A stretch of DNA of 64,000 nt from Myxococcus guangdongensis (GTDB lineage: Bacteria; Myxococcota; Myxococcia; Myxococcales; Myxococcaceae), in NCBI RefSeq assembly GCF_024198255.1, contig NZ_JAJVKW010000001.1:558001-622000 (forward strand), written 5' to 3'. The first letter of the stretch is position 1. Every line of letters begins with the position of its first letter. The notes beneath the pieces were generated by a model. It saw only the letters and a list, made by a program, of their open reading frames with translations. It did no database searches and was not told the origin of the DNA. Both the position numbers and the translations under genes were made by a program. Below, one piece after another: positions 5,514-23,015 of the stretch.

Positions 5514-6500
5514 ATGCGCAAGCTCACCGTCCGACACGAGAGCTGGCCCATCGCGGGGAGCTTCACCATCTCCCGGGGCTCGAAGACGAGCGCGGAGGTG
5601 GTGGTCGTCACCCTGGAGGAAGGCGGCGCCGTGGGCCGCGGCGAGTGTGTCCCCTATGCCCGCTATGGCGAGACGGTGCCGGGCGTCATGGAGGCGCTGG
5701 AGGCCGCCCGGGCGCGCATCGAGGGCGGGCTCTGCCGGGAGGAGGTCCCCGAGGTGCTCGAGCCCAAGGCCGCGCGCAACGCGCTGGACTGTGCGCTGTG
5801 GGATTTGGAGGCGAAGCGGACCGGCAGGCCCGTCTGGGCGCTGTTGGGGATGCCCGAGCCCCGGCCGCTCGTCACCGCGTACACGCTGAGCCTGGACACG
5901 GCGGAGGCCATGGGCCGGGCCGCCGTGAAGTCCGCGCACCGGCCGCTGCTCAAGGTGAAGCTCGGGCGTGGGAGCACGGAGGACCTGGAGCGCCTCGAGG
6001 CCATCCGCGAGGGAGCGCCGGCCAGCCGGCTCATCGTGGACGCCAACGAGGGGTGGAGCCCCGCGGAGCTGCCGGGCCTGCTGGATGCGTGCGCGAAGCT
6101 GGGTGTGGTGATGGTGGAGCAGCCCCTGCCCGCCTCGGACGACGAGGCCCTGCGAGGGCTGGGGCGTCCGGTGGCGGTGTGCGCCGACGAGTCCGCGCAT
6201 GACCGGCACGGGCTGGCGGCGCTCGTGGGCAAGTACGACGCGCTCAACATCAAGCTCGACAAGACGGGAGGGCTCACCGAAGCCCTGGCCCTGGCCCGGG
6301 ACGCGCGAGGGCACGGGCTGCAGCTCATGGTGGGCTGCATGGTGGCCACGTCCCTGTCCATGGCCCCCGCGGCCCTGGTGGCCCAGGACGCGGAGGTGGT
6401 GGACCTGGACGGCCCCCTGCTGCTGGCGAAGGACCGCGAGCCGGGCCTCCACTTCGAGGGGAACACCCTGTTCTGGCCGCCCCGAGCGTTGTGGGGCTGA
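5514..6500 (+). CDS. dgcA: Enolase-superfamily racemase/epimerase (DgcA/dipeptide epimerase type)
   Basis: This 328-residue protein belongs to the muconate-lactonising subgroup of the enolase superfamily. It has the capping domain (residues 1 to about 110) and then a TIM barrel. KVKLGRG carries the catalytic Lys. The metal ligands lie in VDANEGW, VEQPL and ADES, and KLDKTGG carries the second catalytic Lys. Length and motifs fit L-Ala-D/L-Glu epimerases. The tight spacing after dgcN, with ribosome site GAGGAG overlapping the previous stop, points to N-acetyl-glutamate racemase in D-amino acid use. Ordinary peptidoglycan dipeptide epimerase is the alternative. Confidence 0.8.
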   Translation: MRKLTVRHESWPIAGSFTISRGSKTSAEVVVVTLEEGGAVGRGECVPYARYGETVPGVMEALEAARARIEGGLCREEVPEVLEPKAARNALDCALWDLEAKRTGRPVWALLGMPEPRPLVTAYTLSLDTAEAMGRAAVKSAHRPLLKVKLGRGSTEDLERLEAIREGAPASRLIVDANEGWSPAELPGLLDACAKLGVVMVEQPLPASDDEALRGLGRPVAVCADESAHDRHGLAALVGKYDALNIKLDKTGGLTEALALARDARGHGLQLMVGCMVATSLSMAPAALVAQDAEVVDLDGPLLLAKDREPGLHFEGNTLFWPPRALWG

Positions 6501-6591
6501 AGCACCAGCCGGGGCTTCGTCGTCCCGATGGCACCCGACGACAAGGGCCTCTTGCCCTGGGCGGGCCGGAAGCACAGCATGCGCGGCCACC

Positions 6592-8439
6592 GTGTCCGTG
6601 AACGCCACCCGCCCGAGTCCCCACCACACGTATACCGAGCGCCGCGCCGCCGCCCAGGCGGAGCTGTCCGTCCTGGACCGCATCAGCGCCCGCTACGCCA
6701 ACCTGCGCACCGTGGCGGTCCTCGCCGCGGCCATCATCTCGGGCCTCATCCTCACCGGCCGACTGCCCAAGACGTGGTGGTGGGGCGCGCTCGGCTTCGT
6801 CGTCGTCTTCATCATTCTCGCGGTGCTCCACCACCAGGTGTTCCGCCGCGAGGAGCGCCAGCGGCTCTACGTGACGCTCAATGAGCGGGGACTGGCGCGC
6901 CTGGGACACGGCTGGCACGAGTTCACCGAGCAGGGTGAGCGCTTCGCCTCCCCCGCCCACCTGTACACGCCGGACCTGGACGTCTTCGGACAGGGCAGCC
7001 TGTTCCAGCTCCTCAATGAGACGGCCACTCGCGCCGGCGAGGAGCGGCTCGCCGCGTGGCTGTCGTCCCCTGCTCCGCTGGAGGTCGTCGAGGCCCGACA
7101 GGGCGCCGCCCAGGAGCTGGCCCCGCGCGTGGACTTCCGGCAGGACCTCTGCGTGGACGCGCGCACGGTGGCCAAGGAGAAGGCGGACCCCGCGCTCTTC
7201 ATCCAGTGGGCGGAAGCCGGCTCCTCGCTCGACTCCATCCGCTGGTCCCGCCCGCTGGCGGTGGTGCTGCCCTTCGTGACGCTCGCGCTCTTCATCCTGG
7301 GCGAGGTGGGCGTGATTCCCGGCTCAGCCGTCTGGGCGGGCCTCATCGCGCAGCTCGCGCTGGCGGCGGCCACCCGCAAGACGCTCAAGCGGATGGACGA
7401 CAACGTGGAGAAGGGCGAGCGGGGCTTCGCGCGGTATGCCCCCCTCTTCGAGCGCATCGAGGGCCAGCGCTTCGAGCATCCCCTGCTGCGCCAGCTCCAG
7501 GCAGGCCTCCAGCAGCAGGGCGAGCCGCCGGTGTCCACGCACTTCCGGCGCTTCAGTCAGCTCTTCTCGCTCATCGAGTTCAAGCGGCACCAGTTCCACC
7601 CGCTGGTTCACTGGCTCACCCTCTGGGACATCCACGCGCTGTTCGCGCTGGAGCGATGGCGCGAGAAGCACGGCACGCGCGTGCGGCACTGGTTCGAGGC
7701 GCTCGCGGAGCTGGAGGCGCTGTCCTGCGTCGCCGGGCTCGCGCATGACCGCCCCGCCTTCGCGTGGCCCTCGCTGGTCAAAGAGGGGCCTATCGTCGAG
7801 GCGACGAAGCTGGGCCACCCGCTGCTGGACGCGCCCGTGCCCAACGACGTGTCCCTGCCCGGGCCCGCGCACGCGTTGCTCATCACCGGCTCCAACATGA
7901 GCGGGAAGACGACGCTGATGCGCGCGGTGGGCGCCAACGTGGTGCTGGCGCTCGCCGGAGCGCCCGTGGCCGCCGCGTCGTTCCGCCTGTCACCGCTGCA
8001 TGTGCTCACCAGCATGCGGGTGAAGGACTCGCTGGAGCGCGGCGTCTCCTACTTCTACGCGGAGGTGCAGCGCATCAAGGCCGTGCTGGACGCGGCGCGC
8101 GCGGCGAACGGGCAGGCCCTGTTCCTGCTCGACGAAATCCTGCTCGGCACCAACACGCGGGAGCGCCAGCTCGCCTCGCGCGAGGTGCTGCGCCTGTTGC
8201 TCGCCACGGGGGCCAGCGGCGCGGTGACGACGCATGACCTGTCGCTGACCTCGCTCGCCGAGGAGACCACCCACGCGAAGGTCCGCAACGTCCACTTCCG
8301 GGACCACCTGGAGGAGGGACAGATGGTGTTCGACTACACGCTGCGCGAGGGCGTGGTGGACACCACCAACGCGCTGCGCGTGCTGCGGCTCGCCGGTGTC
8401 CCCGTGGACGACCCGGAGGCGCCCACGCCCCGCGCGTAG
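6592..8439 (+). CDS. Membrane-anchored MutS-family ATPase
   Basis: This protein of about 615 residues ends in a MutS-type ABC ATPase domain. It shows Walker A GSNMSGKTT, signature-like SLERGVSYF, Walker B ALFLLDEILLGTN and switch His TTHD. Unlike true MutS it has no N-terminal mismatch-binding domain. Instead there are two hydrophobic helices near residues 35-75 and another pair near 215-265, so the clamp region appears membrane-attached. This matches a little-studied MutS-like family and not mismatch repair MutS or MutS2 (no Smr or KOW domain). The start is uncertain: GTG 6592 is used, GTG 6598 is equally possible, and neither has a clear ribosome site. The dgcA gene lies 91 bases upstream. 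Confidence 0.75.
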   Translation: MSVNATRPSPHHTYTERRAAAQAELSVLDRISARYANLRTVAVLAAAIISGLILTGRLPKTWWWGALGFVVVFIILAVLHHQVFRREERQRLYVTLNERGLARLGHGWHEFTEQGERFASPAHLYTPDLDVFGQGSLFQLLNETATRAGEERLAAWLSSPAPLEVVEARQGAAQELAPRVDFRQDLCVDARTVAKEKADPALFIQWAEAGSSLDSIRWSRPLAVVLPFVTLALFILGEVGVIPGSAVWAGLIAQLALAAATRKTLKRMDDNVEKGERGFARYAPLFERIEGQRFEHPLLRQLQAGLQQQGEPPVSTHFRRFSQLFSLIEFKRHQFHPLVHWLTLWDIHALFALERWREKHGTRVRHWFEALAELEALSCVAGLAHDRPAFAWPSLVKEGPIVEATKLGHPLLDAPVPNDVSLPGPAHALLITGSNMSGKTTLMRAVGANVVLALAGAPVAAASFRLSPLHVLTSMRVKDSLERGVSYFYAEVQRIKAVLDAARAANGQALFLLDEILLGTNTRERQLASREVLRLLLATGASGAVTTHDLSLTSLAEETTHAKVRNVHFRDHLEEGQMVFDYTLREGVVDTTNALRVLRLAGVPVDDPEAPTPRA

Positions 8440-8663
8440 CGCATACCGAGGAGCACCCGACCACCGCGACGTCGGGCCTCGCGGCACGACGACGCCTCCT
8501 CCTTGCGCTCGGCGGCCCCATGCCCGACCGCCACGTCGAGGTATCGACGCCACCGCGCCAGCGATGTCCGGCTCGGAAACCAACGGCCCGGGGGTGCAGA
8601 CCTCCAGAGCCCACGAGCGCCCTCGGGCACTCGACGCGGGGCTCCCGAGAAACCAGCCTGGAA

Positions 8664-8702
8664 ATGAAAACGGGCCCCGGGAAGCGCTTCCCCGGGGCCC
8701 GT
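8664..8702 (-). terminator. Rho-independent terminator of the thiolase operon
   Basis: A GC-rich stem (8670-8702) pairs about 15 bp with one bulge. On the minus strand it is followed by TTTTCAT, so it ends the transcript that leaves the thiolase gene at 8727. The rest of 8440-8663 holds nothing I recognise. Confidence 0.75.
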
Positions 8703-8726
8703 GAACTTTCGAAGTCGAAGCGGCGA

Positions 8727-9899
8727 CTACTTCGCCAGCTCGATGAGCGCCGCGGCGCCCATGCCGCCACCGATGCACATGGTGACGACGCCGTAGCGGC
8801 CGTTGCGGCGCTTGAGCTCGCGCAGAATCGTCGCGACCAGACGCGCACCGGACACGCCCAGCGGGTGACCCAGGGCGATGGCGCCGCCGTTCGGGTTCAC
8901 CTTGTCCATGGGGATGCCCAGTTCACGGATGCAGTACAGCGCCTGCGGAGCGAAGGCCTCGTTCAGCTCGAAGACGTCGATGTCCTTCACCTCGAGCTTG
9001 TTCTTCGCCAGGAGCTTGCGCACCGCGGGCACGGGGCCGATGCCCATGACCTCCGGAGGCACGCCCGCGACGGCGAAGTCCACGAAGTAGCCCAGCGGCT
9101 TGACGCCCAGCTCCTTCGCCTTCTCCTCGCTCATCACCACCGCCGCCGCCGCGCCGTCCGTCAGCGGCGACGCGTTGCCGGCCGTCACCACGCCCTTGGC
9201 GTTGAACGCCGGGCGCAGCTTGCCCAGGCCCTCGGCCGTCGTCTCCGGACGCAGGATGGTGTCCACCGACACCGTCACCGTCTGCGCCTTGCCGTCCTCG
9301 TCGTAGACAGTGGTGGTGACCGGGACGATCTCCTCGGAGAACTTCCCCGTCTCCCGCGCGGCGGCCGCGCGGCGCTGGCTCTCCGCGGCGAACTTGTCGG
9401 AGTCCTCACGCGACACGTTGTGACGCGAGGCGATGTTCTCCGCCGTCACACCCATGGAGCTGTAGATCTCCGGGTGGTTCGCCATGATGTCCGGGTTGGC
9501 GCTGACCTTGTTGCCGCCCATGGGCACCATCGTCATGGACTCGGTGCCACCCCCGATGCCCACCTGGATGTGGCCCGCCTGGATGGCCGCGGCAATCTGC
9601 GCGATGGCCTGCGTCCCGGAGGAACAGAAGCGGTTGATGGTCATCGCGGCAACCTCCACCGGAAGACCCGCCAGCAGCGTGGCCTGACGCGCCACGTTCA
9701 TGCCCTGCTCGGCCTCCGGCATGGCACAGCCCAGGACGACGTCCTCCACGTCCGACGGCTTCAGGCCGGGGACCTGGGCCACGGCCTCCTTGATGGCGGC
9801 GGCCGCCAGCGTATCCGGCCGCGTGTCCTTGAACTCTCCCTTGTGCGCGCGGGTGAACGGCGTGCGGACCGCGCTGGCAATCACGACTCGACCAGGCAT
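8727..9899 (-). CDS. fadA: Acetyl-CoA acyltransferase (thiolase) of fatty acid beta-oxidation
   Basis: This 390-residue thiolase covers the full usual length. The nucleophile Cys lies in NRFCSSGTQAI. The active-site His is in GGAIALGHPLGVSGAR and the second Cys in CIGGGMGAA. It catalyses CoA-dependent cleavage of 3-ketoacyl-CoA to acetyl-CoA and a shortened acyl-CoA in the cytoplasm. It follows the fused dehydrogenase/hydratase gene by 77 bases on the same strand. A good ribosome site (AAGGAGA) lies directly after a hairpin in that gap. Together they supply the last three steps of the beta-oxidation spiral. Confidence 0.92.
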   Translation of the reverse strand: MPGRVVIASAVRTPFTRAHKGEFKDTRPDTLAAAAIKEAVAQVPGLKPSDVEDVVLGCAMPEAEQGMNVARQATLLAGLPVEVAAMTINRFCSSGTQAIAQIAAAIQAGHIQVGIGGGTESMTMVPMGGNKVSANPDIMANHPEIYSSMGVTAENIASRHNVSREDSDKFAAESQRRAAAARETGKFSEEIVPVTTTVYDEDGKAQTVTVSVDTILRPETTAEGLGKLRPAFNAKGVVTAGNASPLTDGAAAAVVMSEEKAKELGVKPLGYFVDFAVAGVPPEVMGIGPVPAVRKLLAKNKLEVKDIDVFELNEAFAPQALYCIRELGIPMDKVNPNGGAIALGHPLGVSGARLVATILRELKRRNGRYGVVTMCIGGGMGAAALIELAK

Positions 9900-14281: not shown

Positions 14282-15163
14282 CTACTTCGCCGACTGCGCC
14301 TTCAGGCGCTTCTCGGAGAGGTCCAGGTACTTCTCGTCCATGTCGATGCCCACGTAGCGGCGGCCCAGCTTGAGGGCCGCCACACCGGTGGTGCCGCTGC
14401 CGTTGAAGGGGTCCAGGATGAGCGCGTCCTCGGGGGTGCTCGCCTCGATGATGCGCTCGAGCAGGGCCACGGGCTTCTGCGTGGGGTGGCTGCCGTGGGC
14501 CTTCTCCTCACCGCCGCGCGGGACGGTGAGCGTCCACAGCCGACCCTCGCCGTCGTCCGTCACTTCCGCGTCGCCGGAGGGCGGCAGCACCCACGCGTCG
14601 CGCATCTGCTTGCCGCCGTTGTCCGACTTCATCTTCTTGTAGTTGAAGATGTGCTGCAGCTTGCCGCCCGACTTCGGCGAGGCCCAGATGAGCAGCTCCG
14701 TCGAGTGGGTGAAGTAGCGGCAGGCCAGGTTCGGACTGGCGTTGGGCTTGAACCAGGTGACGGTGTTGAGCAGCTTGTAGCCGAGCTTCTGCATGGCGAA
14801 GCCGGCGTTGAAGATGACGTGCTGGGTGCCGCTGACCCAGAGCGTGCCGGTGGGCTTGAGCAGCCGCTGGCAGGCCTCCAGCCACGCCGTGGTGAAGGCG
14901 TGGTCCTCCTCCACCCCGCGCGACACGTCCCAGTTGCCCTTCTTCACCGCGACGCGCTTGCCACCCTTGCAGGTGGTGCCGCCATTGGAGAGGAAGTACG
15001 GCGGGTCGGCGAAAATCATGTCGAAGGTCTGGGGCTCGAACTGCTTGAGGAGCTCCAGGCTGTCCCCGTGCAGGAGCGTCCAGGCGTCGCCCTTCGCGTG
15101 CACGCTCTCGTTGAGGGAGCGCCGGACAATCTTCAGGTCAGGGGCAGCAGCTTCAGCCAACAT
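14282..15163 (-). CDS. Site-specific DNA methyltransferase, beta class
   Basis: This 293-residue amino-methyltransferase has the catalytic motif DPPY (in IFADPPYFLSNGG) near the N terminus. The SAM-binding motif FNGSGTTG lies near the C terminus, after SHPTQKP. This permuted order defines the beta class, which methylates adenine N6 or cytosine N4. The ATG at 15161-15163 is chosen because GGAGG precedes it by a few bases; the frame continues upstream without a site. No restriction endonuclease or specificity gene is adjacent, so it is an orphan methylase that may regulate replication or transcription, or be a restriction relic. The recognition sequence cannot be read from the gene. Confidence 0.88.
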   Translation of the reverse strand: MLAEAAAPDLKIVRRSLNESVHAKGDAWTLLHGDSLELLKQFEPQTFDMIFADPPYFLSNGGTTCKGGKRVAVKKGNWDVSRGVEEDHAFTTAWLEACQRLLKPTGTLWVSGTQHVIFNAGFAMQKLGYKLLNTVTWFKPNASPNLACRYFTHSTELLIWASPKSGGKLQHIFNYKKMKSDNGGKQMRDAWVLPPSGDAEVTDDGEGRLWTLTVPRGGEEKAHGSHPTQKPVALLERIIEASTPEDALILDPFNGSGTTGVAALKLGRRYVGIDMDEKYLDLSEKRLKAQSAK

Positions 15164-15287
15164 CACGCCTCCGTCGGACTCTTCGTCGTGGGACGCGGCG
15201 GAATGTGCGGTGACTTGAGTGCTACGTCTAATTTCTGGCCTGTAGCACCCTGAAATTTGACCCGGGGGGCTTGCCGTGGAAACGACT

Positions 15288-15335
15288 CGAGCAGGGCGGG
15301 AGCGCCTCCAGTGAGGCCCTCCGACACCCTGCTCG
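15288..15335. repeat. Large imperfect cruciform between rpmE and the methylase gene
   Basis: Outer 9-bp arms CGAGCAGGG (15288-15296) and CCCTGCTCG (15327-15335) are perfect. Inside them a second 10-bp stem with one mismatch (GGAGCGCCTC and GAGGCCCTCC) closes on a CAGT loop. There is no T-run, so it may be a Rho-assisted terminator or a structured RNA. Confidence 0.5.
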
Positions 15336-15353
15336 ACGGTGCTGCGAATGGCT

Positions 15354-15374
15354 GTCACGCGGCGAGCGCGTGAC
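15354..15374 (-). terminator. Hairpin just downstream of rpmE
   Basis: Perfect 8-bp arms GTCACGCG and CGCGTGAC with a five-base loop begin nine bases after the rpmE stop. There is no U-tract. It is possibly a 3' stabilising hairpin or part of a terminator with the cruciform at 15288-15335. Confidence 0.45.
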
Positions 15375-15382
15375 GGCTCGAA

Positions 15383-15652
15383 TCAGGCCTTGGCCTTCTT
15401 GCCCTTGGCGACCGGGACGGCGATGGCGCCCTCGCCAGCGGCGGTCTCCGTGGGGTTCGAGCCGTACTTCTTGCGGAAGCGGTCGATGCGGCCGGCCGTG
15501 TCCACGAGCTTGTACTTGCCCGTGAAGAAGGGGTGGCAGTTCGAGCAGATTTCCACCGAGAACGAGCCGCGGGTGGAGTGGGTCTCGACGACGTTGCCAC
15601 ACGCGCAGGTGATGCGGGACGGCGGATAGACGGGGTGCATTTCCGGCTTCAT
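15383..15652 (-). CDS. rpmE: 50S ribosomal protein L31, zinc-binding form
   Basis: This 89-residue protein starts [11 protein letters not shown]. It has Cys16, Cys18, Cys36 and Cys39 (TCACGN and ICSNCHPF), the zinc site of the C+ type of L31. It bridges the two ribosomal subunits at the central protuberance. The C-terminal 20 residues are an Ala/Lys extension beyond the usual length of about 70. The start is set by GGAG upstream of the ATG at 15650-15652; a longer frame is not supported. A sigma70-like promoter lies at 15721-15749. The C+ form implies zinc-replete expression; no C- paralogue is in the window. Confidence 0.95.
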
Positions 15653-15720
15653 GACGCTCTCCAGGGTGCCTTGCCCCCAGCCGCCCACGGCAGGGAGGTC
15701 CGGCACTGTAATGGCCGGCG

Positions 15721-15761: not shown

Positions 15762-16904
15762 TCAGTGGGCCGCCGAGCCCGGGGGCTCGACACGTTCCAC
15801 CGCCTTCTGGACGACCGGATCCGCCGGTACGTCACTGCCGAGCTGGATGTACGACAATAGATGCGTCCGGGCCGAAGGCGTTGCGCCGCCCGCCACCGTC
15901 TTCTCCAGGGACTGGCGCCGGGCCTCCAGGCTGGCGACCGTGGACTCGAGCGCCCGCTTCTGCGCCTCGTCCTTCATCTGGGCCAGCCGCTCCTTCGCCC
16001 GGGCGAGGTTCGTCTCGACGATGCGGAGGCTGTCGCGGGTGCGCTCGCGCTCGGAGACGTCCACGAAGCGACCGGGCCCGTCGATGGACAGCTCCAGCTT
16101 CGCGACCTGGCGGCCCCGCTCGCCCGGGGGCACCACGGTGGTCAATCCCACGCGCTGGGCGATGCCAGCGCCCCGACCCTCGTGCGACTGCACCACGAAG
16201 TCCACGCCCTCCAGCTCACCGGCGAGCCCGAGCAGGTCGTTGTAGGGCACGGCGGCCAGGAGGATGACCAGGTCCACCTTCTGCTCCCGCAGCGCCTTCA
16301 CCTCGGCCATGACGGAGGGGAGCACGGGCAGCCCCTGCCGCTTGACGGCCGTGGCCTTGCCCTGGGCGAAGGGCTCCATGGGCTCCGGCTGCGCGGTGGC
16401 CGGCGACGCGCCCACCAGGCCGACCTTGAGCCCGCCCACCTGCGTCACCAGCGACGCGGAAAACAGCAGCTTGCCCTGCGCGTCCACGAGGTTCGCGGAC
16501 AGGAGCTTCATCTTCGACTTGCGCGACTGCTTGCGCAGGAAGTCCACACCCAGCGACAAGTCGCGCGTGCCCACGGCCATGGCGGTGGTGCCCTGCGCGC
16601 TCATCTGCGCGAACACCAGCTCGGCGCGCGCGCGCGCATCCGGGGACTCACCGCTGTCCCGGCTCTTGAAGAGCGCGTTGCCCGCGTCCAACACGAGGAC
16701 CGGCACGCCCTTGGCGCGCTCCTTCTCTATCGTGACTTTTCTTCTGGCCAGACCGCCAGACGGGTTGTGTCGTCAACCACAGGGGGCGACTTCGCCCCCG
16801 TTGTCTCCAGTGAAGAGGAGCACGAGCTGCTTGGGCGCGGCCCCCGCGACGAGCGGGAACAGCAGGGCGGCCAGCAGGGCGAGCCCGGGCAGGCGGAGGC
16901 TCAC
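15762..16904 (-). CDS. Metallophosphatase/5'-nucleotidase-like exported selenoprotein (in-frame UGA read as Sec)
   Basis: Read through one in-frame UGA (16773-16775), this is a 380-residue protein. It opens with a classical signal peptide (residues 1-23, ending LVAGAA), then LLFTGDNGGEVAPC, Gly43, Sec44 and Arg45, then NPSGGLARR. The following domain resembles metallophosphatases (VLVLDAGNALF, AVGTRDLSLG, SANLVDAQGKLLF, FVVQSHEG), although several metal ligands are altered. It ends in a coiled coil. The GTG start overlaps the previous stop as GTGA. The same frame is coding on both sides of the UGA, and a SECIS-like hairpin follows it at the canonical spacing. From memory, relatives carry Cys-Gly-Cys here, so Sec would replace the second Cys. 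Calling from the GTG at 16706 would lose the export signal. A nonsense mutation is the alternative. Confidence 0.8.
16743..16775 (-). promoter_or_regulatory. SECIS-like element with recoded UGA
   Basis: The mRNA begins with UGA (16775-16773). Eighteen bases follow, and then the loop GGUCUG (16754-16749) is held by a perfect 6-bp stem UCUGGC/GCCAGA (16760-16743). In E. coli fdhF the apical GGUCU also starts 18 bases after UGA, with G23 and U24 contacting SelB. Here G and U fall at the same positions 23 and 24. Confidence 0.78.
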
Positions 16905-17749
16905 TTCTTGGCCCCCTTCTTCGCGGGCGTCTTCGCCTTGTCCAGCTCCGCGATGCGGTCCTTGGCCGTCTTGGCGGCGCCGGACTTGGGGTAGCTCTTC
17001 ACCAGCTCCTCGAGCGCCATGCGCGACTCGTCCTTCATCTTGAGCTGGGCGAAGCACTCGGAGGAGCGCAGGTACGCATCCGGCGCGGAGGGCGTCTTCG
17101 GGTGGTCCTGCACCACCTTGCCGTACTCGAAGAGGGCCTCGCGGCACTTGGACTCGGAGAAGTACGTCTCTCCCAGGCCGTAGTGGGCCTCGCCGACGAG
17201 CGCGTCCTTGGACCACTTCTTCATCAGCTCGGTGAAGAGCTGGCGCGCCACGAGCAGCTCGCCGGCCTTGGCGCGCTCCTGCGCGAGCGCGAGGAAGTCC
17301 TTGGGGTTGGTGGGGCGCTGGAGCTCCTCGGCCTTCTTCTTGGCCTCGGCCTCCTTCACGGCGGCGGCGCCCTGCATGGCGAGCAGCTTCTGGTCCTGGG
17401 CGCCGAGCGCCGTCTCCAGCTCGGTGATTTTGTGGAGGTAGGTCTCCACCTGCCCGCGCAGCTGGGACAGGTCCTCCATCGTCTTCTGGAGCTGGATGCC
17501 GATGTCCGCGTCCTTGCGGCGCGCGGCGGTGTCCAGGCCGTCCAGGGCCTTGGTGACCTCGGCGACCTTCTCGTCGATCTTCGGCAGGACGATGGCGAGC
17601 TGGGCGCGCGCCTCCTTCAACTCCGTCTGCATCTGCGCGGAGTCGGTGCCGAGCCGGTCGACCTTCGCCTCGAGGGCGCGGCCGCGATCAGCGGGATAGA
17701 AACAGCCAGGGAGCGCCACCAGCAGCGCGAACAGGACGAGCCTTCGCAT
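16901..17749 (-). CDS. Coiled-coil/TPR lipoprotein, CpoB (YbgF)-like
   Basis: This 282-residue lipoprotein has lipobox LPGC (Cys16). A long coiled coil follows (residues about 25-150, heptad-rich in Leu, Lys and Glu). The C-terminal half is TPR-like with two or three repeats (EAHYGLGETYFSESKCREALFEYGKVV and SAPDAYLRSSECFAQL). This is the layout of CpoB/YbgF, which coordinates outer-membrane constriction with peptidoglycan synthesis beside Tol-Pal. No tol genes are here; the gene follows cheR by 59 bases and overlaps the selenoprotein start by four. It may instead be an accessory scaffold for those neighbours. The Lys-rich tail AKKGAKK is unusual. Confidence 0.75.
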   Translation of the reverse strand: MRRLVLFALLVALPGCFYPADRGRALEAKVDRLGTDSAQMQTELKEARAQLAIVLPKIDEKVAEVTKALDGLDTAARRKDADIGIQLQKTMEDLSQLRGQVETYLHKITELETALGAQDQKLLAMQGAAAVKEAEAKKKAEELQRPTNPKDFLALAQERAKAGELLVARQLFTELMKKWSKDALVGEAHYGLGETYFSESKCREALFEYGKVVQDHPKTPSAPDAYLRSSECFAQLKMKDESRMALEELVKSYPKSGAAKTAKDRIAELDKAKTPAKKGAKK

Positions 17750-17808: not shown

Positions 17809-19068
17809 CTAGCGGGGCCCGCCCAGGGGCTCCAGGCGGCCAGCCGCGTGCGCGCACGCCACCCGCAGGCGGCTGGGGTTGAGGAAGAAGGGCACCGGGC
17901 GGGCGCGGCCCTCCTCCAGGGCGACCAGGGCCCGGCGGTACTCGGAGACCGCCTCGAGGGGGCGGCGGCACTGCTCCAACAACAGGGCCAGCAGGTAGCG
18001 GGCGGCCGCATGGTCGGGGTCCAACTGGAGGCACTGGCGCAAGTCCCGCTCCGCCACCGCGTCCGACACGCCCGACGCGGCGCCGTCGAGCACGCAGGCG
18101 AAGAGCAGGTCGGCCTCGGCGAACGCGGGGGCCAGGGGTGGGGCCTCGAGCGGGGCCGCCGACGCGGAGGGCGCCGCGCCCCGGGGTGTCCCCCTGGGCG
18201 GTCCCAACGGGACAGGGGTGGAGGGGCTCCGCGTCACCTCCACGGGGACGAAGCGCTCGGCTTCACCGCGGACGTGGAAGAACGCCGACTCCGTGCGGAC
18301 CACGCGCAGGGTGGGCGGCACCTGGAGCAGCGGCTCCGAGGACGACAGCACCAGCGTGCCCCCGGGCGCGAGGCTCTCCGCGAGCGTGGCGACGGTCCGG
18401 TGGAAGGACTCCACCGTGAAGTAGATGAGGACGTTGCGGCAGAAGATGACGTCGAAGCCGCGCTCGGCCGGGGCCCGGGGATAGGGCACGTCCATCAGGT
18501 TGTGGACCTGGAAGCTGGCCCGCTCGCGAAGCCCGCCCATCAGCGCCAGGCGCGAGCCCGTCGACACGAAGTAGCGCTCCCGGAGCGCGGGCGGCACCCG
18601 ACGCAGCTGCTCCGTGGAGAAGGAGAGTCCTCGCGCGCGCCGCAGCGCCGCCTCCGAGATGTCCGTGCCCAGCACGGTGCTCCCGGGGCTCGCGCCCGCC
18701 TCGGCCAGCAGCACCAACAGCGTGGCCACCTCCTCGCCCGTCGAGCACCCCGCGCTCCACACCCGCAGGGGCCCTCCCCTCGCCCGCTCCACCAGCGGCG
18801 CCAGCACGTGCTCGCGGAAGTCGGTGAGCTGCACCTCGTCGCGGAAGAGGTCGGTCTTGTTCACCACCACCGCGGAGATGAGCCCCTCGAGCTCCGCCGC
18901 GCCGGTGGGGGACTTGAGGAACGCCAGGTACTGGTGCGGCGTCAGCCCGCGACACCGCTCCGCCAGCCGGTCATCCAGCCGACGAATCTGGGGGCCGCTC
19001 AAGGCCATGCCCGTACGCGCCGTGAGGAAGGCCCGCACGAAAGCCCATGGCGCGCTCGGAGCACGCAC
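17809..19068 (-). CDS. cheR: CheR chemoreceptor methyltransferase with TPR-like tail
   Basis: This protein of about 419 residues starts with the helical CheR N domain. The SAM-binding methyltransferase domain follows: VWSAGCSTGEEVATLL, GTDISEAALRRAR, FDVIFCRNVLIYF. It adds methyl groups to glutamates of the MCPs. After a Pro-rich linker the C terminus carries TPR-like helices (LRQCLQLDPDHAAARYLLALLLEQ), a common CheR extension for receptor or partner binding. The GTG at 19066-19068 is chosen as the first start after the cheB stop, seven bases away; the frame continues upstream inside cheB. It closes the chemosensory part of the operon. Confidence 0.9.
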   Translation of the reverse strand: MRAPSAPWAFVRAFLTARTGMALSGPQIRRLDDRLAERCRGLTPHQYLAFLKSPTGAAELEGLISAVVVNKTDLFRDEVQLTDFREHVLAPLVERARGGPLRVWSAGCSTGEEVATLLVLLAEAGASPGSTVLGTDISEAALRRARGLSFSTEQLRRVPPALRERYFVSTGSRLALMGGLRERASFQVHNLMDVPYPRAPAERGFDVIFCRNVLIYFTVESFHRTVATLAESLAPGGTLVLSSSEPLLQVPPTLRVVRTESAFFHVRGEAERFVPVEVTRSPSTPVPLGPPRGTPRGAAPSASAAPLEAPPLAPAFAEADLLFACVLDGAASGVSDAVAERDLRQCLQLDPDHAAARYLLALLLEQCRRPLEAVSEYRRALVALEEGRARPVPFFLNPSRLRVACAHAAGRLEPLGGPR

Positions 19069-19075
19069 CGCCAGC

Positions 19076-20131
19076 TCAGCGCCCCACGGCCAGCGACTCG
19101 CCCCGGGCCAGTCGCGACAGCGTCGCCGCGACCTCGTCGCCGTGGATGAGGTGGTCCACCGCCTTGCGCTCCACCGCCGCGCCCGGCATGCCGAACACCA
19201 CGCAGGACTCCTCGTTCTGCGCCAGCGTGAGCCCACCGGCCTGACGGATGGCCAGGAGCCCCTCCGCGCCGTCCGCGCCCATGCCCGTCAGCACCAGGCC
19301 CACCGCGCGCCGGCCGTAGGTCCTCGCCGCGCTCTCCAGCAGCGTCGTCCCGGAGGGCATGTGCCCGTCGCGCTCCACGCCCGCCTTGAGCGCCACCCGA
19401 CCCCGGAAGGGAATCATGGTGTGCTGCCCCGGCGGCGCGATGAGCACGTGGCCCGGCATCAACGGCTCACCATCCTGTGCCAGCCGCACCTTCAGCCGGC
19501 TGGTGTTGCCCAGCCACCCCGCCAGCGACTCGGCGAAGGCGGCGTTGATGTGCTGCACGATGACGATGGGCGCGGGGAAGTCCGACGGCAGCTCGGACAA
19601 CATCCTGCACAGCACCTGCGGCCCGCCCGTGCTCGCGGCCACCACCACCACGCCCATGGACACGGCGGGCAGCACGGACGTCGTCACGCGGGGCGGGGTG
19701 ATGCCCTTCTGGGGACGGCGCAGGTGGCGGATGACGCGCACCGAGGAGAGCAGTCTTATCTCCCGCACCAGGTTCCAGGCCTCGGGGCCGGCGTCGATGG
19801 CGGGCTTGATTTGCAGCGCGAGCGCGCCCAGTTCCAGCGCCCGGTACGTCAGCTCCGGCGCCTGCGAGCGCGGGTCCGCCGTCAGCACCAGGATGGGCGT
19901 GGGGCACTCGGCCATGATGTGCTCGGTGGCCGTCAACCCATCCATGACGGGCATGTCCACGTCCATGGTGATGACGTGGGGCCGCAGCTCCTTGGTCATC
20001 TCCACGGCCTGCTTGCCGTCCGCGCACGAGCCGACGACCTCGATGTCGGGGTCCTTGCTCAGCGCCTCGCAGATGAGCTGTCGGCAGATGAGTGAGTCAT
20101 CGACCACCAGCACCGACACTTTCTTGCCCAT
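19076..20131 (-). CDS. cheB: CheB chemoreceptor methylesterase response regulator
   Basis: This 351-residue protein has an N-terminal receiver domain (VLVVDDS; phospho-acceptor Asp57 in MDVDMP) joined to the methylesterase/deamidase domain. The catalytic Ser lies in AASTGGP, His in IVIVQHI and Asp in [11 protein letters not shown]. It removes methyl groups from MCPs when phosphorylated by CheA. The start is the ATG at 20129-20131, after a GGACAGG sequence. It lies between cheA (80 bases upstream) and cheR. Confidence 0.93.
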
Positions 20132-20210
20132 GCCCTGTCCATACCCCGTGCGCGAGGCGCCGAGTATAGCCAATGCTCCGGCCTGTCCTCAGGAGGTTGA
20201 GCGGGGGCCC

Positions 20211-23015
20211 TCAGGACAACAGTCGTCCCACCACATCCACCAGGTCCTGGCGCACCAGGTCCCCCTTGGTGACGTAGGCGTCCGCCCCCGCCGCCAGCCC
20301 ACGCCGCCGGTCCTCCTCTCCACCACGGGTGGTGAGGATGACGACGGGCAGCCTCGGCTGGGCGGAAAGTTCCTTCAGCCGGCGGGTCAGCTCCAGGCCG
20401 TCCATGCCCGGCATCTCCAGGTCGGTCACCACCAGGTCCACCGGGGCGCCCTCCAGGACGTCCAGCGCGTCCGCCCCGTCGGCAGCCATGACGGTGTCGT
20501 AGCCCACCGCCTCCAGGAGGTTGGAGATGAGCTCCCGGGTGAGGGGGGAGTCGTCCACGACGAGGATGCGCCGGCGACGCGACTCCGTCCCGGGGGCCGA
20601 CGAACGGGGCAGCTTCAGCGGGGACGTCCCGTGGGCACTGGCGGTGAGGTAGGCCGCCGACAGCACCATGGCGAGTCGACCATCCGCCAGGGACGTGGCG
20701 CCCGTGAGGTGGCCGAAGCGGGCCAGCACGCCGCGCAGGGGGAGGATGGCCTGGACGCGCTCCTCGAGCACCCGGTCCACGACGACGGCCGCGGCGCCGC
20801 TCTGGCTGCGGACCACGAGGACGAGCTCTCCCTCGCGGACCTCCCTCTCCGCGGACAGGCCGAGGAGCGCGCCGAGCGACGCCAGGGGCAGCACCCTCCC
20901 CTCCACGAGCAGCGCGGGCCGGCCCGCCACCTCGCACAGGTGCAGGGGCTCCACCTTGAGGGCGCGCGAGACGTGGGTGGCGCTCAAGGCGAGCGTCTCC
21001 GTGCCCACCTGGACGAAGAGCAGCGGCGCCACGGTGAGGGACACGGGGACGCGCAGCTCGAAGATGGTGCCCCAGCCGGGCGCCGATTCGACGCCGACGT
21101 CGCCGCCCAGGCCCTGGATGGAGGCGCGCACGGCGTCCAGTCCCACGCCCCGACCTGACAGGTCCGTGACGACCTCTCGGGAGGTGAAGCCCGCCAGGAA
21201 GATGAGCTCGCGGGTGGCGGCGTCGGACAGGGCGTTGGCGGCGCTCTCGTCGAGGACGCCCCGGCGCACGGCCACTCGGCGCAGCTCCACGGGGTCCAGT
21301 CCCATGCCGTCGTCCTCGACGCGCAGGATGATGCGGCTGCCCTCGCGCGCGGCGCGCAGGGTGAGACAGCCCCTGGGGTGCTTGCCGGAGGTGACGCGGT
21401 CCACCCGGGTCTCCAGGCCGTGGTCCAGGGCGTTGCGCACCAGGTGCATCAGCGGCTCTCGCAGCGCCTCCACCACCGCCCGGTCCGCGCGGGTGTCCTC
21501 GCCGTCGACGACGAGCTCCACCTCCTTGCCCAGCGTGCGCGACAGGTCCCGCACCATGCGCGGATAGGGCTCGAAGAGGACGGACAGGGGGAGCATGCGC
21601 AGCCCCTGCACCTCTTCGACGACCATCCCCAGGTCGCGGAGTTCTTCGTTGGAGAGCAGCTTGGACTCGCGATGGAGGTCCGCGGCCAGTTCCTTGGCGG
21701 TGCCGAGCCGGGCCACCAGCGCGGCGGCGGCGGGGCCCAGGTCCTCGGCTTCCCGGGCGAGTTTTCCGAGCTCCCGAGCCAGGGCCAGGCGGCGGGCGTT
21801 GGCGCGCTCACGGCGACGGGCGACCTGGGCCAGGTTCGTCACCGCGCTGGTCAACAGGTCCAGGCTGGCCACGTCGATGCGCACCGCGTCCATGCGCATC
21901 TCGGGCTGACGGGGCGTCGGGGAGGGCCCCTGCCCTGGCGCGGCCACACGAGGGCCCGGGACGGGGGTGGGCGCGTGCGCCGCGCCAGTCGTTCCCATGG
22001 AAGGGCGGGCGGGGCTTGCCTCGGGGCGAGGCGCGGAGGGCCAGCCGCGATTCTGGGAGACGGTCGAGATGCCGCCCGTGGGCAGTGGGGCGCTACCGCG
22101 GAGTGGAGGTTCCGCGGGAGACACCGTGGACACGCGGGTCATCCCCGGCCCCGAGATTCGCCAGAGAGGGTTGCCACCGGGCGAGGAGCGCGCTCCGGTT
22201 CGAGCAGTCCCATCGGCGACGGATGCCTCGCTCCGAGGAGGAGCATCGGGAGCACGCGCACCGCTCGTGGCAAGCACTTCGGGGGCAGCCCCTTCGGACC
22301 GGAACGAAGCCTCGGACGCACGCGCACCGCTGCGAGCGGAAAGCTCGCGAGCAGTCCCCTCACTCCGGGACGAGACCTCAAGAGCACGAGCCTCGTTGAA
22401 GGAGCGCTCATCGCGGGCGGACGCCTCACCACGAGGCGCCTCGTTGGGAGCGCGCGCAGCGCCTTGGGCAGGAGCACCGCTCCGTGCGTCCCTCTCATTT
22501 CGGAACGAGGAATGAGGAGCAGGAGCCGCACCGCCGAAATCGCCCACCCCGCCCGCTGACCGCGCCAACGACTCGGCCCCGTCGATGCGCACGCTCGAAG
22601 GAGAACCCGCGCCCGCTCCCGTCGGAGCGTCCCGCGTCTCCGCGCGGGTACACGCCTGGAGCCAGCCCACGAGCCGCACCACCTCGGGCGAGGACGCCGC
22701 GCCCGGCTGTGCACCCGAGAGCAGCAGCACCGCGTCAGCGGCGCTCAGGAGCGCGTCCGCCGAATCCGCGGACAAGGCATAGCGCCGGGGCTCCACGCAG
22801 CGGACGAGCTCCTCCATCTCGTGCACCAGCACGTTGATGTCGTCGAAGCCCATCATCCGGGCCTCACCCTTGAGCCCGTGCAACTCGCGCAGCGCCCCCC
22901 GCCCCGCGTCCGGGCTCGCTCCCGCCTCCAGTTCCATGAGCGCCCGGTTGATGCGCTCCAGGCGCACCGTCACCAGGTCCCGGAACTGCCTGAGCAGGCG
23001 CTCGCTCGGGTTCAC
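20211..23015 (-). CDS. cheA: Hybrid CheA histidine kinase with C-terminal receiver
   Basis: This 934-residue kinase has an HPt domain (phospho-acceptor His46 in ELHGLKGEARMM). A low-complexity linker of about 270 residues rich in Ser, Arg, Ala and Glu follows. Then come the dimerisation and ATPase domains (NALDHGLETR, DDGMGLDP, GRGVGLDAVR), a CheW-like domain and a receiver (ILVVDDSPLTR, Asp in VVTDLEMPG). This HPt-kinase-CheW-receiver architecture is that of Myxococcus CheA3 and FrzE. The GTG start overlaps the preceding mcp stop (GTGA). In M. xanthus CheA3 controls CrdA phosphorylation indirectly; that role is carried over by homology. Confidence 0.93.
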   Translation of the reverse strand: MNPSERLLRQFRDLVTVRLERINRALMELEAGASPDAGRGALRELHGLKGEARMMGFDDINVLVHEMEELVRCVEPRRYALSADSADALLSAADAVLLLSGAQPGAASSPEVVRLVGWLQACTRAETRDAPTGAGAGSPSSVRIDGAESLARSAGGVGDFGGAAPAPHSSFRNERDARSGAPAQGAARAPNEAPRGEASARDERSFNEARALEVSSRSEGTARELSARSGARASEASFRSEGAAPEVLATSGARAPDAPPRSEASVADGTARTGARSSPGGNPLWRISGPGMTRVSTVSPAEPPLRGSAPLPTGGISTVSQNRGWPSAPRPEASPARPSMGTTGAAHAPTPVPGPRVAAPGQGPSPTPRQPEMRMDAVRIDVASLDLLTSAVTNLAQVARRRERANARRLALARELGKLAREAEDLGPAAAALVARLGTAKELAADLHRESKLLSNEELRDLGMVVEEVQGLRMLPLSVLFEPYPRMVRDLSRTLGKEVELVVDGEDTRADRAVVEALREPLMHLVRNALDHGLETRVDRVTSGKHPRGCLTLRAAREGSRIILRVEDDGMGLDPVELRRVAVRRGVLDESAANALSDAATRELIFLAGFTSREVVTDLSGRGVGLDAVRASIQGLGGDVGVESAPGWGTIFELRVPVSLTVAPLLFVQVGTETLALSATHVSRALKVEPLHLCEVAGRPALLVEGRVLPLASLGALLGLSAEREVREGELVLVVRSQSGAAAVVVDRVLEERVQAILPLRGVLARFGHLTGATSLADGRLAMVLSAAYLTASAHGTSPLKLPRSSAPGTESRRRRILVVDDSPLTRELISNLLEAVGYDTVMAADGADALDVLEGAPVDLVVTDLEMPGMDGLELTRRLKELSAQPRLPVVILTTRGGEEDRRRGLAAGADAYVTKGDLVRQDLVDVVGRLLS

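What the first reader, a model, noticed from the sequence alone, without database searches (positions are those of the whole stretch)
16743..16904. Hidden selenoprotein: in-frame UGA with a SECIS-like hairpin
The coding frame from GTG 16904 gives a perfect signal peptide, then reaches UGA at codon 44. It continues in the same frame without other stops for over 330 codons (RHNPSGGLARR onward). Directly after the UGA, at exactly the fdhF distance of 18 bases, lies a GGUCUG loop on a perfect 6-bp stem. The residue before is Gly and the one before that Cys, giving Cys-Gly-Sec, a redox-pair pattern. Calling the gene only from GTG 16706 would miss the first 66 residues.
Basis: partly seen in the sequence, partly recalled or inferred. 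Interest (0 to 1): 0.93.

Follow-up and report, generated by a model that had tools for sequence, protein, structure and literature searches.

The report
Selenoprotein hidden by in-frame stop codon
A Myxococcus gene that looks cut short by a stop codon very probably encodes an exported protein with the rare amino acid selenocysteine, and the signal that makes the ribosome insert it seems to include several RNA hairpins, some of them before the stop codon.

Summary
From GTG 16904 the frame runs through UGA 16775-16773 to a stop at 15764-15762 (380 residues, Cys-Gly-Sec). The genome has selA, selB, selD and tRNA-Sec. Of 110 loci read (the window's included), 88 have UGA and 22 Cys at this column. 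UGA genes keep the downstream hairpin with rare synonymous codons; Cys versions mostly do not. A 100%-complete genome without detectable tRNA-Sec or SelB has Cys in the syntenic orthologue.

The family is known (UshA-like (seleno)protein, NCBIfam NF041198, CxU). But this gene scores 187 bits against a cut-off of 275 and lacks the C-terminal multihaem part and most metal ligands: a short, probably redox-only variant.

Not in the finding: RNA constraint extends upstream. Four tandem hairpins flank the UGA. The strongest, 7-bp GGGGGCG-AARU-CGCCCCC ending 6 nt before it, is fully paired in 80 of 88 UGA loci (2.1 expected) and 0 of 19 Cys loci. I found no description of such an element in the papers searched. 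Sec insertion, the hairpins' role and the substrate are untested.

The parts
15762..16904 (-). selenoprotein gene, GTG start at 16904, UGA44 read as Sec, stop TGA at 15764-15762; 380 aa
   Evidence: similar length after the UGA in most relatives
16836..16904 (-). probable signal peptide (about 23 residues, AxA-type end)
   Evidence: read by eye; no signal-peptide program was run
16773..16775 (-). in-frame UGA, predicted Sec44 of a Pro-Cys-Gly-Sec motif
   Evidence: UGA in 88 and Cys codon in 22 of 110 loci read, the window's own included
16743..16760 (-). H4: SECIS-like hairpin, 6-bp stem, GGUCUG loop 18 nt after the UGA
   Evidence: fdhF spacing compared
16763..16778 (-). H3: 5-bp hairpin GGUUG/CAACC that holds the UGA
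   Evidence: fully paired in 74 of 88 UGA loci, 4.9 expected; little covariation
16782..16799 (-). H2: upstream 7-bp hairpin GGGGGCG-AAGU-CGCCCCC, ends 6 nt before the UGA
   Evidence: fully paired in 80 of 88 UGA loci, 2.1 expected; 0 of 19 Cys loci; pair counts; coordinates
16804..16816 (-). H1: upstream 5-bp hairpin UCUUC-ACU-GGAGA
   Evidence: fully paired in 75 of 88 UGA loci, 10.2 expected; also in 7 of 15 Cys paralogues, 1.2 expected
16901..17749 (-). upstream neighbour: TPR gene with a lipoprotein-like start (by eye), stop overlaps the selenoprotein start (GTGA)
   Evidence: found directly upstream in 86 of 88 UGA loci
15383..15706 (-). downstream neighbour: ribosomal protein L31 gene
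   Evidence: Pfam PF01197; found downstream in 50 of 88 UGA loci, within the flanks held

Best explanation
The gene encodes an exported selenoprotein. SelB with Sec-tRNA reads UGA44 as selenocysteine, directed by the SECIS hairpin H4, whose loop begins 18 nt after the UGA. The product is a single metallophosphoesterase-fold domain of the UshA/SoxB superfamily. Its Cys42-Gly43-Sec44 follows the first strand, close in sequence to the first metal-ligand loop of UshA. Most metal ligands are gone, so the most likely activity is thiol/selenol redox chemistry in the periplasm, not phosphate-ester hydrolysis. Longer relatives carry a C-terminal multihaem cytochrome-like part, so the likely partner is a c-type cytochrome in trans, or a thiol. 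Shown by sequence comparison: UGA kept in frame, SECIS kept, Sec machinery present, Cys replacement in genomes without detectable tRNA-Sec. Inferred: actual Sec insertion, export, redox role, electron partner.
For: Machinery in the genome: selA N-terminal domain over its cut-off, tRNA-Sec 62 bits, TCA, selB, selD. UGA in 88 and Cys in 22 of 110 loci read. SECIS pairs formed in 94.4% of cells with 13 both-side changes and a covariation score that 0 of 500 shuffles reach, against 63.6% in 22 Cys loci. 72 of 88 fully paired against 3.4 expected. Two UGA loci of another family of the phylum keep the stem with changed bases, CTTGGC..GCCAAG. Of 88 genomes with a UGA copy 87 have tRNA-Sec; of 5 with only a short Cys copy 4 lack it (Fisher p 8.5e-6, related genomes not independent). 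G077 (2 contigs, 100% complete) has TGC and neither tRNA-Sec at E 1e-8 nor SelB at E 1e-60, and its protein nests inside Sec-bearing relatives. Fold: AlphaFold2 pLDDT 87.5; Foldseek best hit UshA, E 2.5e-17; VIA-align Z 29. Ligand columns.
Against: No peptide or selenium-labelling data. The SECIS folded alone is not better than shuffles (z -0.41 and -1.06) and Rfam has no match for it. The number of pairs with a both-side change (2) is reached by 235 of 500 shuffles. In the Cys orthologue L069 (G077) the 6-bp stem can still form, with loop GGCUUG in place of GGUCUG. One UGA locus (L128) comes from G124 (87% complete, 900 contigs), in which neither tRNA-Sec nor SelB was found; G049, G088 and G134 have UGA but no SelB hit at the threshold used. 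One of 48 loci of a second collection has ACC at the column (L218, 30% identity, cut by its contig end). For the redox role there is no direct evidence, and 6 of 87 UGA proteins keep Asp at ligand column 76 and 6 keep His at 218.
Confidence: 0.95

Rival explanations
1. The UGA is a real stop: the gene is a pseudogene, or translation starts anew at GTG 16706 and the upstream part is a short remnant.
For: A standard ORF list gives only GTG 16706, 314 aa.
Against: Protein alignments run through the UGA in all 110 loci read: Asp34, Cys42 and the Sec/Cys column are invariant in the 87 UGA and 22 Cys proteins. The model has a strand of the fold (residues 25-32) upstream of the UGA. Unusual synonymous codons are fixed around the UGA.
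Confidence: 0.02
2. UGA is read as another amino acid, for example by near-cognate tRNA-Trp or a recoded tRNA.
For: None found.
Against: Among 110 loci the only other codons at the column are TGC (21) and TGT (1), never TGG; Cys versions go with loss of tRNA-Sec.
Confidence: 0.02
3. It is a working UshA-like metallophosphoesterase whose Sec is structural.
For: Same fold; NCBIfam matches below cut-off to SoxB and UshA.
Against: Of the ligand and catalytic positions aligned to 5'-nucleotidase 2z1a and SoxB, only D34 and H241 remain in this protein; over 87 UGA proteins the second Asp is Asn in 80, the GNH His is Arg in 83, His218 is Ala in 74. The C-terminal domain of UshA is missing. The roles of the ligands are recalled, not from a call.
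Confidence: 0.1
4. The upstream inverted repeat H2 is a DNA-binding operator inside the gene and not an RNA element of recoding.
For: It is an 18-bp dyad; the double change in L098 (C-G to A-U) keeps both DNA symmetry and RNA pairing. In the Cys orthologue L069 six of the seven pairs, one of them G-U, remain (letters).
Against: Fully paired in none of 4 syntenic Cys orthologues and none of 15 Cys paralogues; G-U pairs at two positions, one sequence each, suit RNA better; no copy in the loci of selA, selB, selD or tRNA-Sec that I hold.
Confidence: 0.25

Closest known systems
NCBIfam NF041198, UshA-like (seleno)protein (UshA_like_PCGU); COG0737 UshA-like, CxU, in GOS 2008 (PMC2398784) and later reviews (PMC9312934, PMC13188914)
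   Same: PCG(U/C) motif, profile positions 17-374 of 519 matched at E 5.9e-55
   Different: 187 bits against a curated cut-off of 275; no C-terminal multihaem part (0 CxxCH, against 3 or 4 in the 17 long PCGC proteins read); in 195 genomes of the phylum only 5 pass the cut-off, and the 5 matches listed over it are long and without UGA
E. coli UshA and related 5'-nucleotidases
   Same: N-terminal metallophosphoesterase fold, Z about 29 over 274 residues at 19% identity
   Different: metal ligands mostly lost, no C-terminal nucleotidase domain, CGU motif added
SoxB thiosulfohydrolase
   Same: same fold, Z about 28; NCBIfam TIGR04486 at E 3e-15
   Different: 55 bits against a cut-off of 550; most ligand positions not kept
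E. coli fdhF SECIS
   Same: GGUCUG starting 18 nt after the UGA
   Different: no bulged U in the stem (fdhF structure recalled); here further hairpins lie upstream of and around the UGA

Membership tests
bacterial selenoprotein | in-frame UGA conserved and aligned with Cys in homologues | tested here: met
   88 UGA, 22 Cys of 110 loci
bacterial selenoprotein | SECIS hairpin just downstream, conserved as RNA | tested here: met
   not matched by any Rfam family
bacterial selenoprotein | selA, selB, selC, selD in the genome | tested here: met
   (N-terminal domain of SelA)
bacterial selenoprotein | Sec found in the protein | not testable with these tools
   needs mass spectrometry or 75Se
NF041198 UshA_like_PCGU (equivalog) | score over the curated cut-off of 275 bits | tested here: not met
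   186.8 bits; so it is filed as a relative, not a member
NF041198 UshA_like_PCGU (equivalog) | PCG(U/C) motif | tested here: met
NF041198 UshA_like_PCGU (equivalog) | C-terminal multihaem part seen in long members | tested here: not met
   0 CxxCH against 3 or 4 in 17 long PCGC proteins; that this defines the family is my reading
UshA / SoxB type metallophosphoesterase | fold | tested here: met
   (predicted structure)
UshA / SoxB type metallophosphoesterase | metal ligands DxH, GD, GNH(E/D), H, GHxH | tested here: not met
   only D34 and H241 kept in this protein; motif list recalled
UshA / SoxB type metallophosphoesterase | phosphoesterase activity | not testable with these tools
   needs an assay

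The most novel reading that the evidence does not exclude
In this myxobacterial clade, Sec insertion is directed by an extended two-sided RNA signal: a row of four hairpins from 41 nt before to 32 nt after the UGA, in which a strong 7-bp hairpin upstream of the Sec codon is at least as conserved as the SECIS and constrains the protein sequence. It would be a form of bacterial Sec recoding signal not described in the papers I searched, possibly serving one dedicated client protein for which Myxococcus keeps its whole selenocysteine machinery.
Probability: 0.55. Interest if true: 0.72.

Novelty: new variant of a known kind. Interest (0 to 1): 0.56.

Why it matters
It gives a clear client for the Sec machinery of Myxococcus and its relatives, in a clade that scores below the current family model's cut-off. 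Bacterial SECIS elements are described as lying immediately downstream of the UGA (PMC1088965, passage), and one recent predictor scans the 300 nt downstream (PMC12013277, passage), so a conserved hairpin upstream would matter for both mechanism and gene finding. Natural Sec-to-Cys replacements, in which the hairpins erode, offer ready controls. A metallophosphoesterase fold that appears to have traded its metal site for Cys-Gly-Sec is also an unusual redox scaffold to test.

Tried and rejected
Rfam search of window 16500-17000: two sub-threshold matches on the other strand, nothing for the SECIS. Folding single sequences: 65-nt and 50-nt stretches are not better than shuffles; a 71-nt stretch with H2, H3 and H4 is (z -3.42), as is less clearly a 91-nt one (z -2.16). 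Among relatives L048 gave z -2.77, but L103 z -1.16 and L098 z -1.53, where H4 is absent from or only partly in the minimum-energy fold. RNAalifold on 66 columns gave only the SECIS (5 pairs), not H3. Other selenoproteins with a like SECIS: model R1 found one strong site in each of 27 Myxococcus genomes; next came Cys paralogues (34.7 bits and less) and then matches of at most 24.6 bits (150 of the 6,030-9,159 first-look candidates per genome were scored). Of seven weak sites in the own genome three hold no UGA; four do, in frames that I judged by eye not to be genes and did not search. R1 is close to this family, so another SECIS type would be missed. Formate dehydrogenase alpha as a second client: 38 matches at E 1e-60 in 27 genomes, none with an internal stop. 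H1 as a Sec-only element is doubtful: 7 of 15 Cys paralogues keep it. H2 has few informative changes: 2 cells with a both-side change (2 of 500 shuffles as high), but slid versions have 0 to 5, so covariation alone does not prove it; the case rests on the synonymous-codon null. On the Cys loci the H2 columns also score above all shuffles for covariation. Among the UGA loci aligned, H2 is complete in the own GTDB family (but not L107, L114) and in L113; by the letters it is partial or absent in L120, L122-L124, L126, L127, L143, L158.

Selections: (127 of 145 genomes matched) I read 110 loci, the window's own among them: the 30 returned and 80 asked for by place, chosen because the match reached or neared the Sec column; many partial or weak SoxB-like matches were left out, so 88 and 22 are counts of loci read, not of the order. 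A second collection gave 48 loci, largely the same places: 32 UGA, 13 Cys, 1 ACC, 2 without the column. Alignment A4 used 32 proteins, A5 the window and 34 of 41 usable ones, the tree 78 of 110. A7 and the Cys-paralogue counts leave out L125, L129 and L130. The ligand table leaves out L128 (fragment); of 18 long PCGC candidates L135 was dropped by my filter. The association test leaves out G022 and G122 (long forms only). Four and seven genomes without a match were not listed; I named them by subtraction. G144, counted as having tRNA-Sec, has only a 51.6-bit hit, and no SelB. In one search seven distant loci were scanned with a motif pattern; three gave a UGA site.

Full report
WHAT WAS CLAIMED AND WHETHER IT IS THERE. 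The minus-strand frame from GTG 16904 was read. It gives a signal-peptide-like start, Pro-Cys-Gly, UGA as codon 44 at 16775-16773, and 336 further codons to TGA 15764-15762. The start overlaps the stop of the gene before it (GTGA). An ordinary ORF list offers only GTG 16706, 314 residues. The stem UCUGGC/GCCAGA with loop GGUCUG occupies 16760-16743, and the loop begins 18 nt after the UGA. I read E. coli fdhF for comparison: there too GGUCUG begins 18 nt after the UGA. The details of the finding are right.

THE MACHINERY. In the window's own genome (11.2 Mb, 53 contigs) the SelA N-terminal family is over its cut-off (29.2 against 22 bits) in a 504-codon frame. tRNA-Sec scores 62.1 bits, over the gathering score of 47, and ARAGORN calls the same gene tRNA-SeC with anticodon TCA. 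SelB is over its cut-off (292 bits, 314 with its second piece), and so is SelD (385 bits).

RELATIVES. Searching the 145 genomes held of the same order gave matches in 127; nearly all of the strongest have one TGA inside. I read the codon at the Sec column in 110 loci, the window's own included: 88 TGA, 21 TGC, 1 TGT. A second collection gave 48 loci, largely the same places: 32 TGA, 13 Cys codons, 1 ACC (L218, weak and cut), 2 without the column; its named records include Myxococcus, Pyxidicoccus, Archangium, Hyalangium and Citreicoccus. The TPR gene lies directly upstream in 86 of 88 UGA loci. Four short Cys loci of the own family with the same upstream gene are taken as orthologues: L069 (G077), L101 (G092), L102 (G129) and L118 (G054); L125 (G144) of another family also has an upstream match, at 28% identity. 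Fifteen further short Cys loci of the own family lack it and are taken as paralogues; 12 genomes hold both a Sec and a Cys copy.

SEC OR CYS FOLLOWS THE MACHINERY. Of 88 genomes with a UGA copy, 87 have tRNA-Sec (E 1e-8) and 84 SelB (E 1e-60). Of 5 with only a short Cys copy, 4 lack tRNA-Sec and 4 lack SelB (Fisher p 8.5e-6 and 1.2e-4; related genomes are not independent). The clearest case is G077: two contigs, 100% complete, neither gene found, TGC at the column, and a tree place beside UGA-bearing G079 (support 99/82). The tree of 78 proteins needs 9 changes between Sec and Cys, at least 8 of them forced by well-supported branches. Results against: G124 has UGA but neither gene was found (87% complete, 900 contigs); G049, G088 and G134 have UGA but no SelB hit; G129 has Cys and SelB; G144 has Cys and a 51.6-bit tRNA hit.

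THE SECIS AS RNA. On the 88 UGA loci (62 distinct rows) the six pairs form in 94.4% of cells, with 13 both-side changes; none of 500 shuffles reached the percentage, the number of such cells or the covariation score, though 235 reached the number of pairs with such a change (2), and no slid version paired more than 46%. On 22 Cys loci it is 63.6%, which 55 of 500 shuffles reach. UGA genes use TCT, GGT and AGA, which are unusual in the same genes. Recoding each gene synonymously with its own codon usage gives a fully paired stem 3.4 times in 88; 72 are observed. Two UGA loci of another family of the phylum (L143, L158) have the same kind of loop on a stem with other bases. Against: in L069 the six pairs can still form, with loop GGCUUG.

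WHAT THE FINDING DID NOT SEE: CONSTRAINT UPSTREAM OF THE UGA. A scan of 117 conserved codons over the whole gene put seven codons near the UGA at the top: Arg54 AGA, Gly33 GGA, Arg55 CGA, Gly51 GGT, Gly43 GGT, Glu38 GAA, Gly36 GGG. Four of these lie before the UGA. Together with other positions they fit three more hairpins: H1 (16816-16804), H2 (16799-16782, GGGGGCG-AAGU-CGCCCCC) and H3 (16778-16763, holding the UGA). Fully paired in UGA loci, observed of 88 and expected from codon usage: H1 75 and 10.2, H2 80 and 2.1, H3 74 and 4.9, H4 (the SECIS) 72 and 3.4. In 25 UGA loci under 70% identical: 17 and 3.2, 19 and 0.6, 14 and 1.3, 14 and 0.7. In the 4 syntenic Cys orthologues: 0, 0, 0, 1. In 15 Cys paralogues: 7, 0, 0, 0. 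L098 keeps H2 by a double change, C-G to A-U, that also changes Ala to Ser. L107 and L114 each carry GGC with GCG in place of GGG with GCC, which may pair in a shifted register (my reading). The exact H2 sequence occurs once in each of 103 of 231 loci held, in none of the loci of selA, selB, selD or tRNA-Sec (many loci are duplicates of one place). A 71-nt stretch with H2-H4 folds better than all 200 shuffles (z -3.42). Limits: H2 and H3 have few informative pair changes, slid versions of H2 reach as many, H2 columns of Cys loci also exceed shuffles, the Cys orthologue L069 still keeps six of seven H2 pairs, H2 is nearly confined to the own family, and H1 also survives in Cys paralogues.

WHAT H2 MIGHT DO. 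Inference only. With UGA in the A site, the 3' arm of H2 would lie on the exit side of the ribosome, so the hairpin would be at least partly open then and could refold behind the ribosome; it may limit slippage or pausing, or keep the GC-rich upstream stretch from pairing with the SECIS. An operator in DNA is the main rival.

THE PROTEIN. NCBIfam's best match is NF041198, UshA-like (seleno)protein, at E 5.9e-55 but 186.8 bits against a cut-off of 275. Pfam gave nothing over its cut-off. Across 195 genomes of the phylum, 161 have a match at E 1e-20 and 5 pass the cut-off; the five matches are long and without UGA. The 17 long PCGC proteins tabulated have 3 or 4 CxxCH motifs; the short protein ends before that part. 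The own genome has one long Cys form too (L169/L171). AlphaFold2 on an alignment of 35 gave pLDDT 87.5 and pTM 0.85; the best structural matches are UshA, CD73 and SoxB. Ligand columns, by alignment with 2z1a and SoxB and over 87 UGA proteins: Asp34 is in 87, but Asp76 is Asn in 80, the His of DxH is Gly in 81, the GNH His is Arg in 83, His218 is Ala in 74, and His241 is kept in 69. Cys42 and Sec/Cys44 are constant in the short proteins and in the 17 long PCGC ones (chosen for that motif). I therefore favour a redox role over hydrolysis.

IS IT THE ONLY CLIENT? With the SECIS model, each of 27 Myxococcus genomes has one strong site (E at most 3.1e-18), then Cys paralogues in some, then weak matches. 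The 38 formate dehydrogenase alpha matches in these genomes have no internal stop. This suggests, but does not show, that this protein is the main reason the genus keeps Sec.

LITERATURE. The family is listed as COG0737 UshA-like, CxU, in the Global Ocean Sampling study (PMC2398784, passages) and in two reviews (PMC9312934, passage; PMC13188914, passages). PMC1088965 (passages) places bacterial SECIS elements immediately downstream of the UGA. PMC12013277 (passages) scans 300 nt downstream. Searches for selenoprotein or selenocysteine with myxococc, Myxococcus, Stigmatella and myxobacter listed no paper that by title or abstract start treats myxobacterial selenoproteins; a search for bacterial SECIS with upstream and UGA listed six, none of which by title or abstract start describes an upstream hairpin. 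Of those six I saw passages of three and only the listing of the others; subscription journals are mostly not held.

VERDICT. Very probably a real selenoprotein gene of a known kind, in a short variant clade below the current model's cut-off, with an unexpected upstream RNA constraint that deserves an experiment.

Noticed in passing
window 17809-23015 (-): CheR, CheB and a CheA-type kinase gene lie directly upstream of the TPR gene and the selenoprotein, a chemosensory cluster (Pfam).
   Followed up: no
window 14282-15358 (-): A DNA methylase of the N6_N4_Mtase family lies beyond the L31 gene.
   Followed up: no
L169/L171 (own genome C1:1151269-1152657): The own genome also holds a long PCGC relative with four CxxCH motifs and Cys in place of Sec.
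   Followed up: partly
L178, record BNCN01000006.1: A record labelled Comamonas sp. KCTC 72670 carries the myxobacterial gene and its neighbours; its contig length equals that of G107:C6, which lies in the window's own genus, so the label looks wrong.
   Followed up: no
G129 (L102): This genome has SelB but no tRNA-Sec was found and the orthologue has Cys; it is a fragmented assembly (910 contigs), or a lineage caught while losing the trait.
   Followed up: no
Cys paralogues among L079-L097 and L109: 7 of 15 Cys paralogues keep hairpin H1 fully paired (1.2 expected), although none has H2, H3 or H4 fully paired; unexplained.
   Followed up: no
codon 33 and codons 54-55 of the gene (window 16808-16806 and 16745-16740): GGA at Gly33 (0.90 against 0.07 expected) and CGA at Arg55 (0.77 against 0.07) are favoured in UGA genes; codon 55 lies beyond the 6-bp SECIS stem, and this genome has AGA there (letters).
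   Followed up: partly
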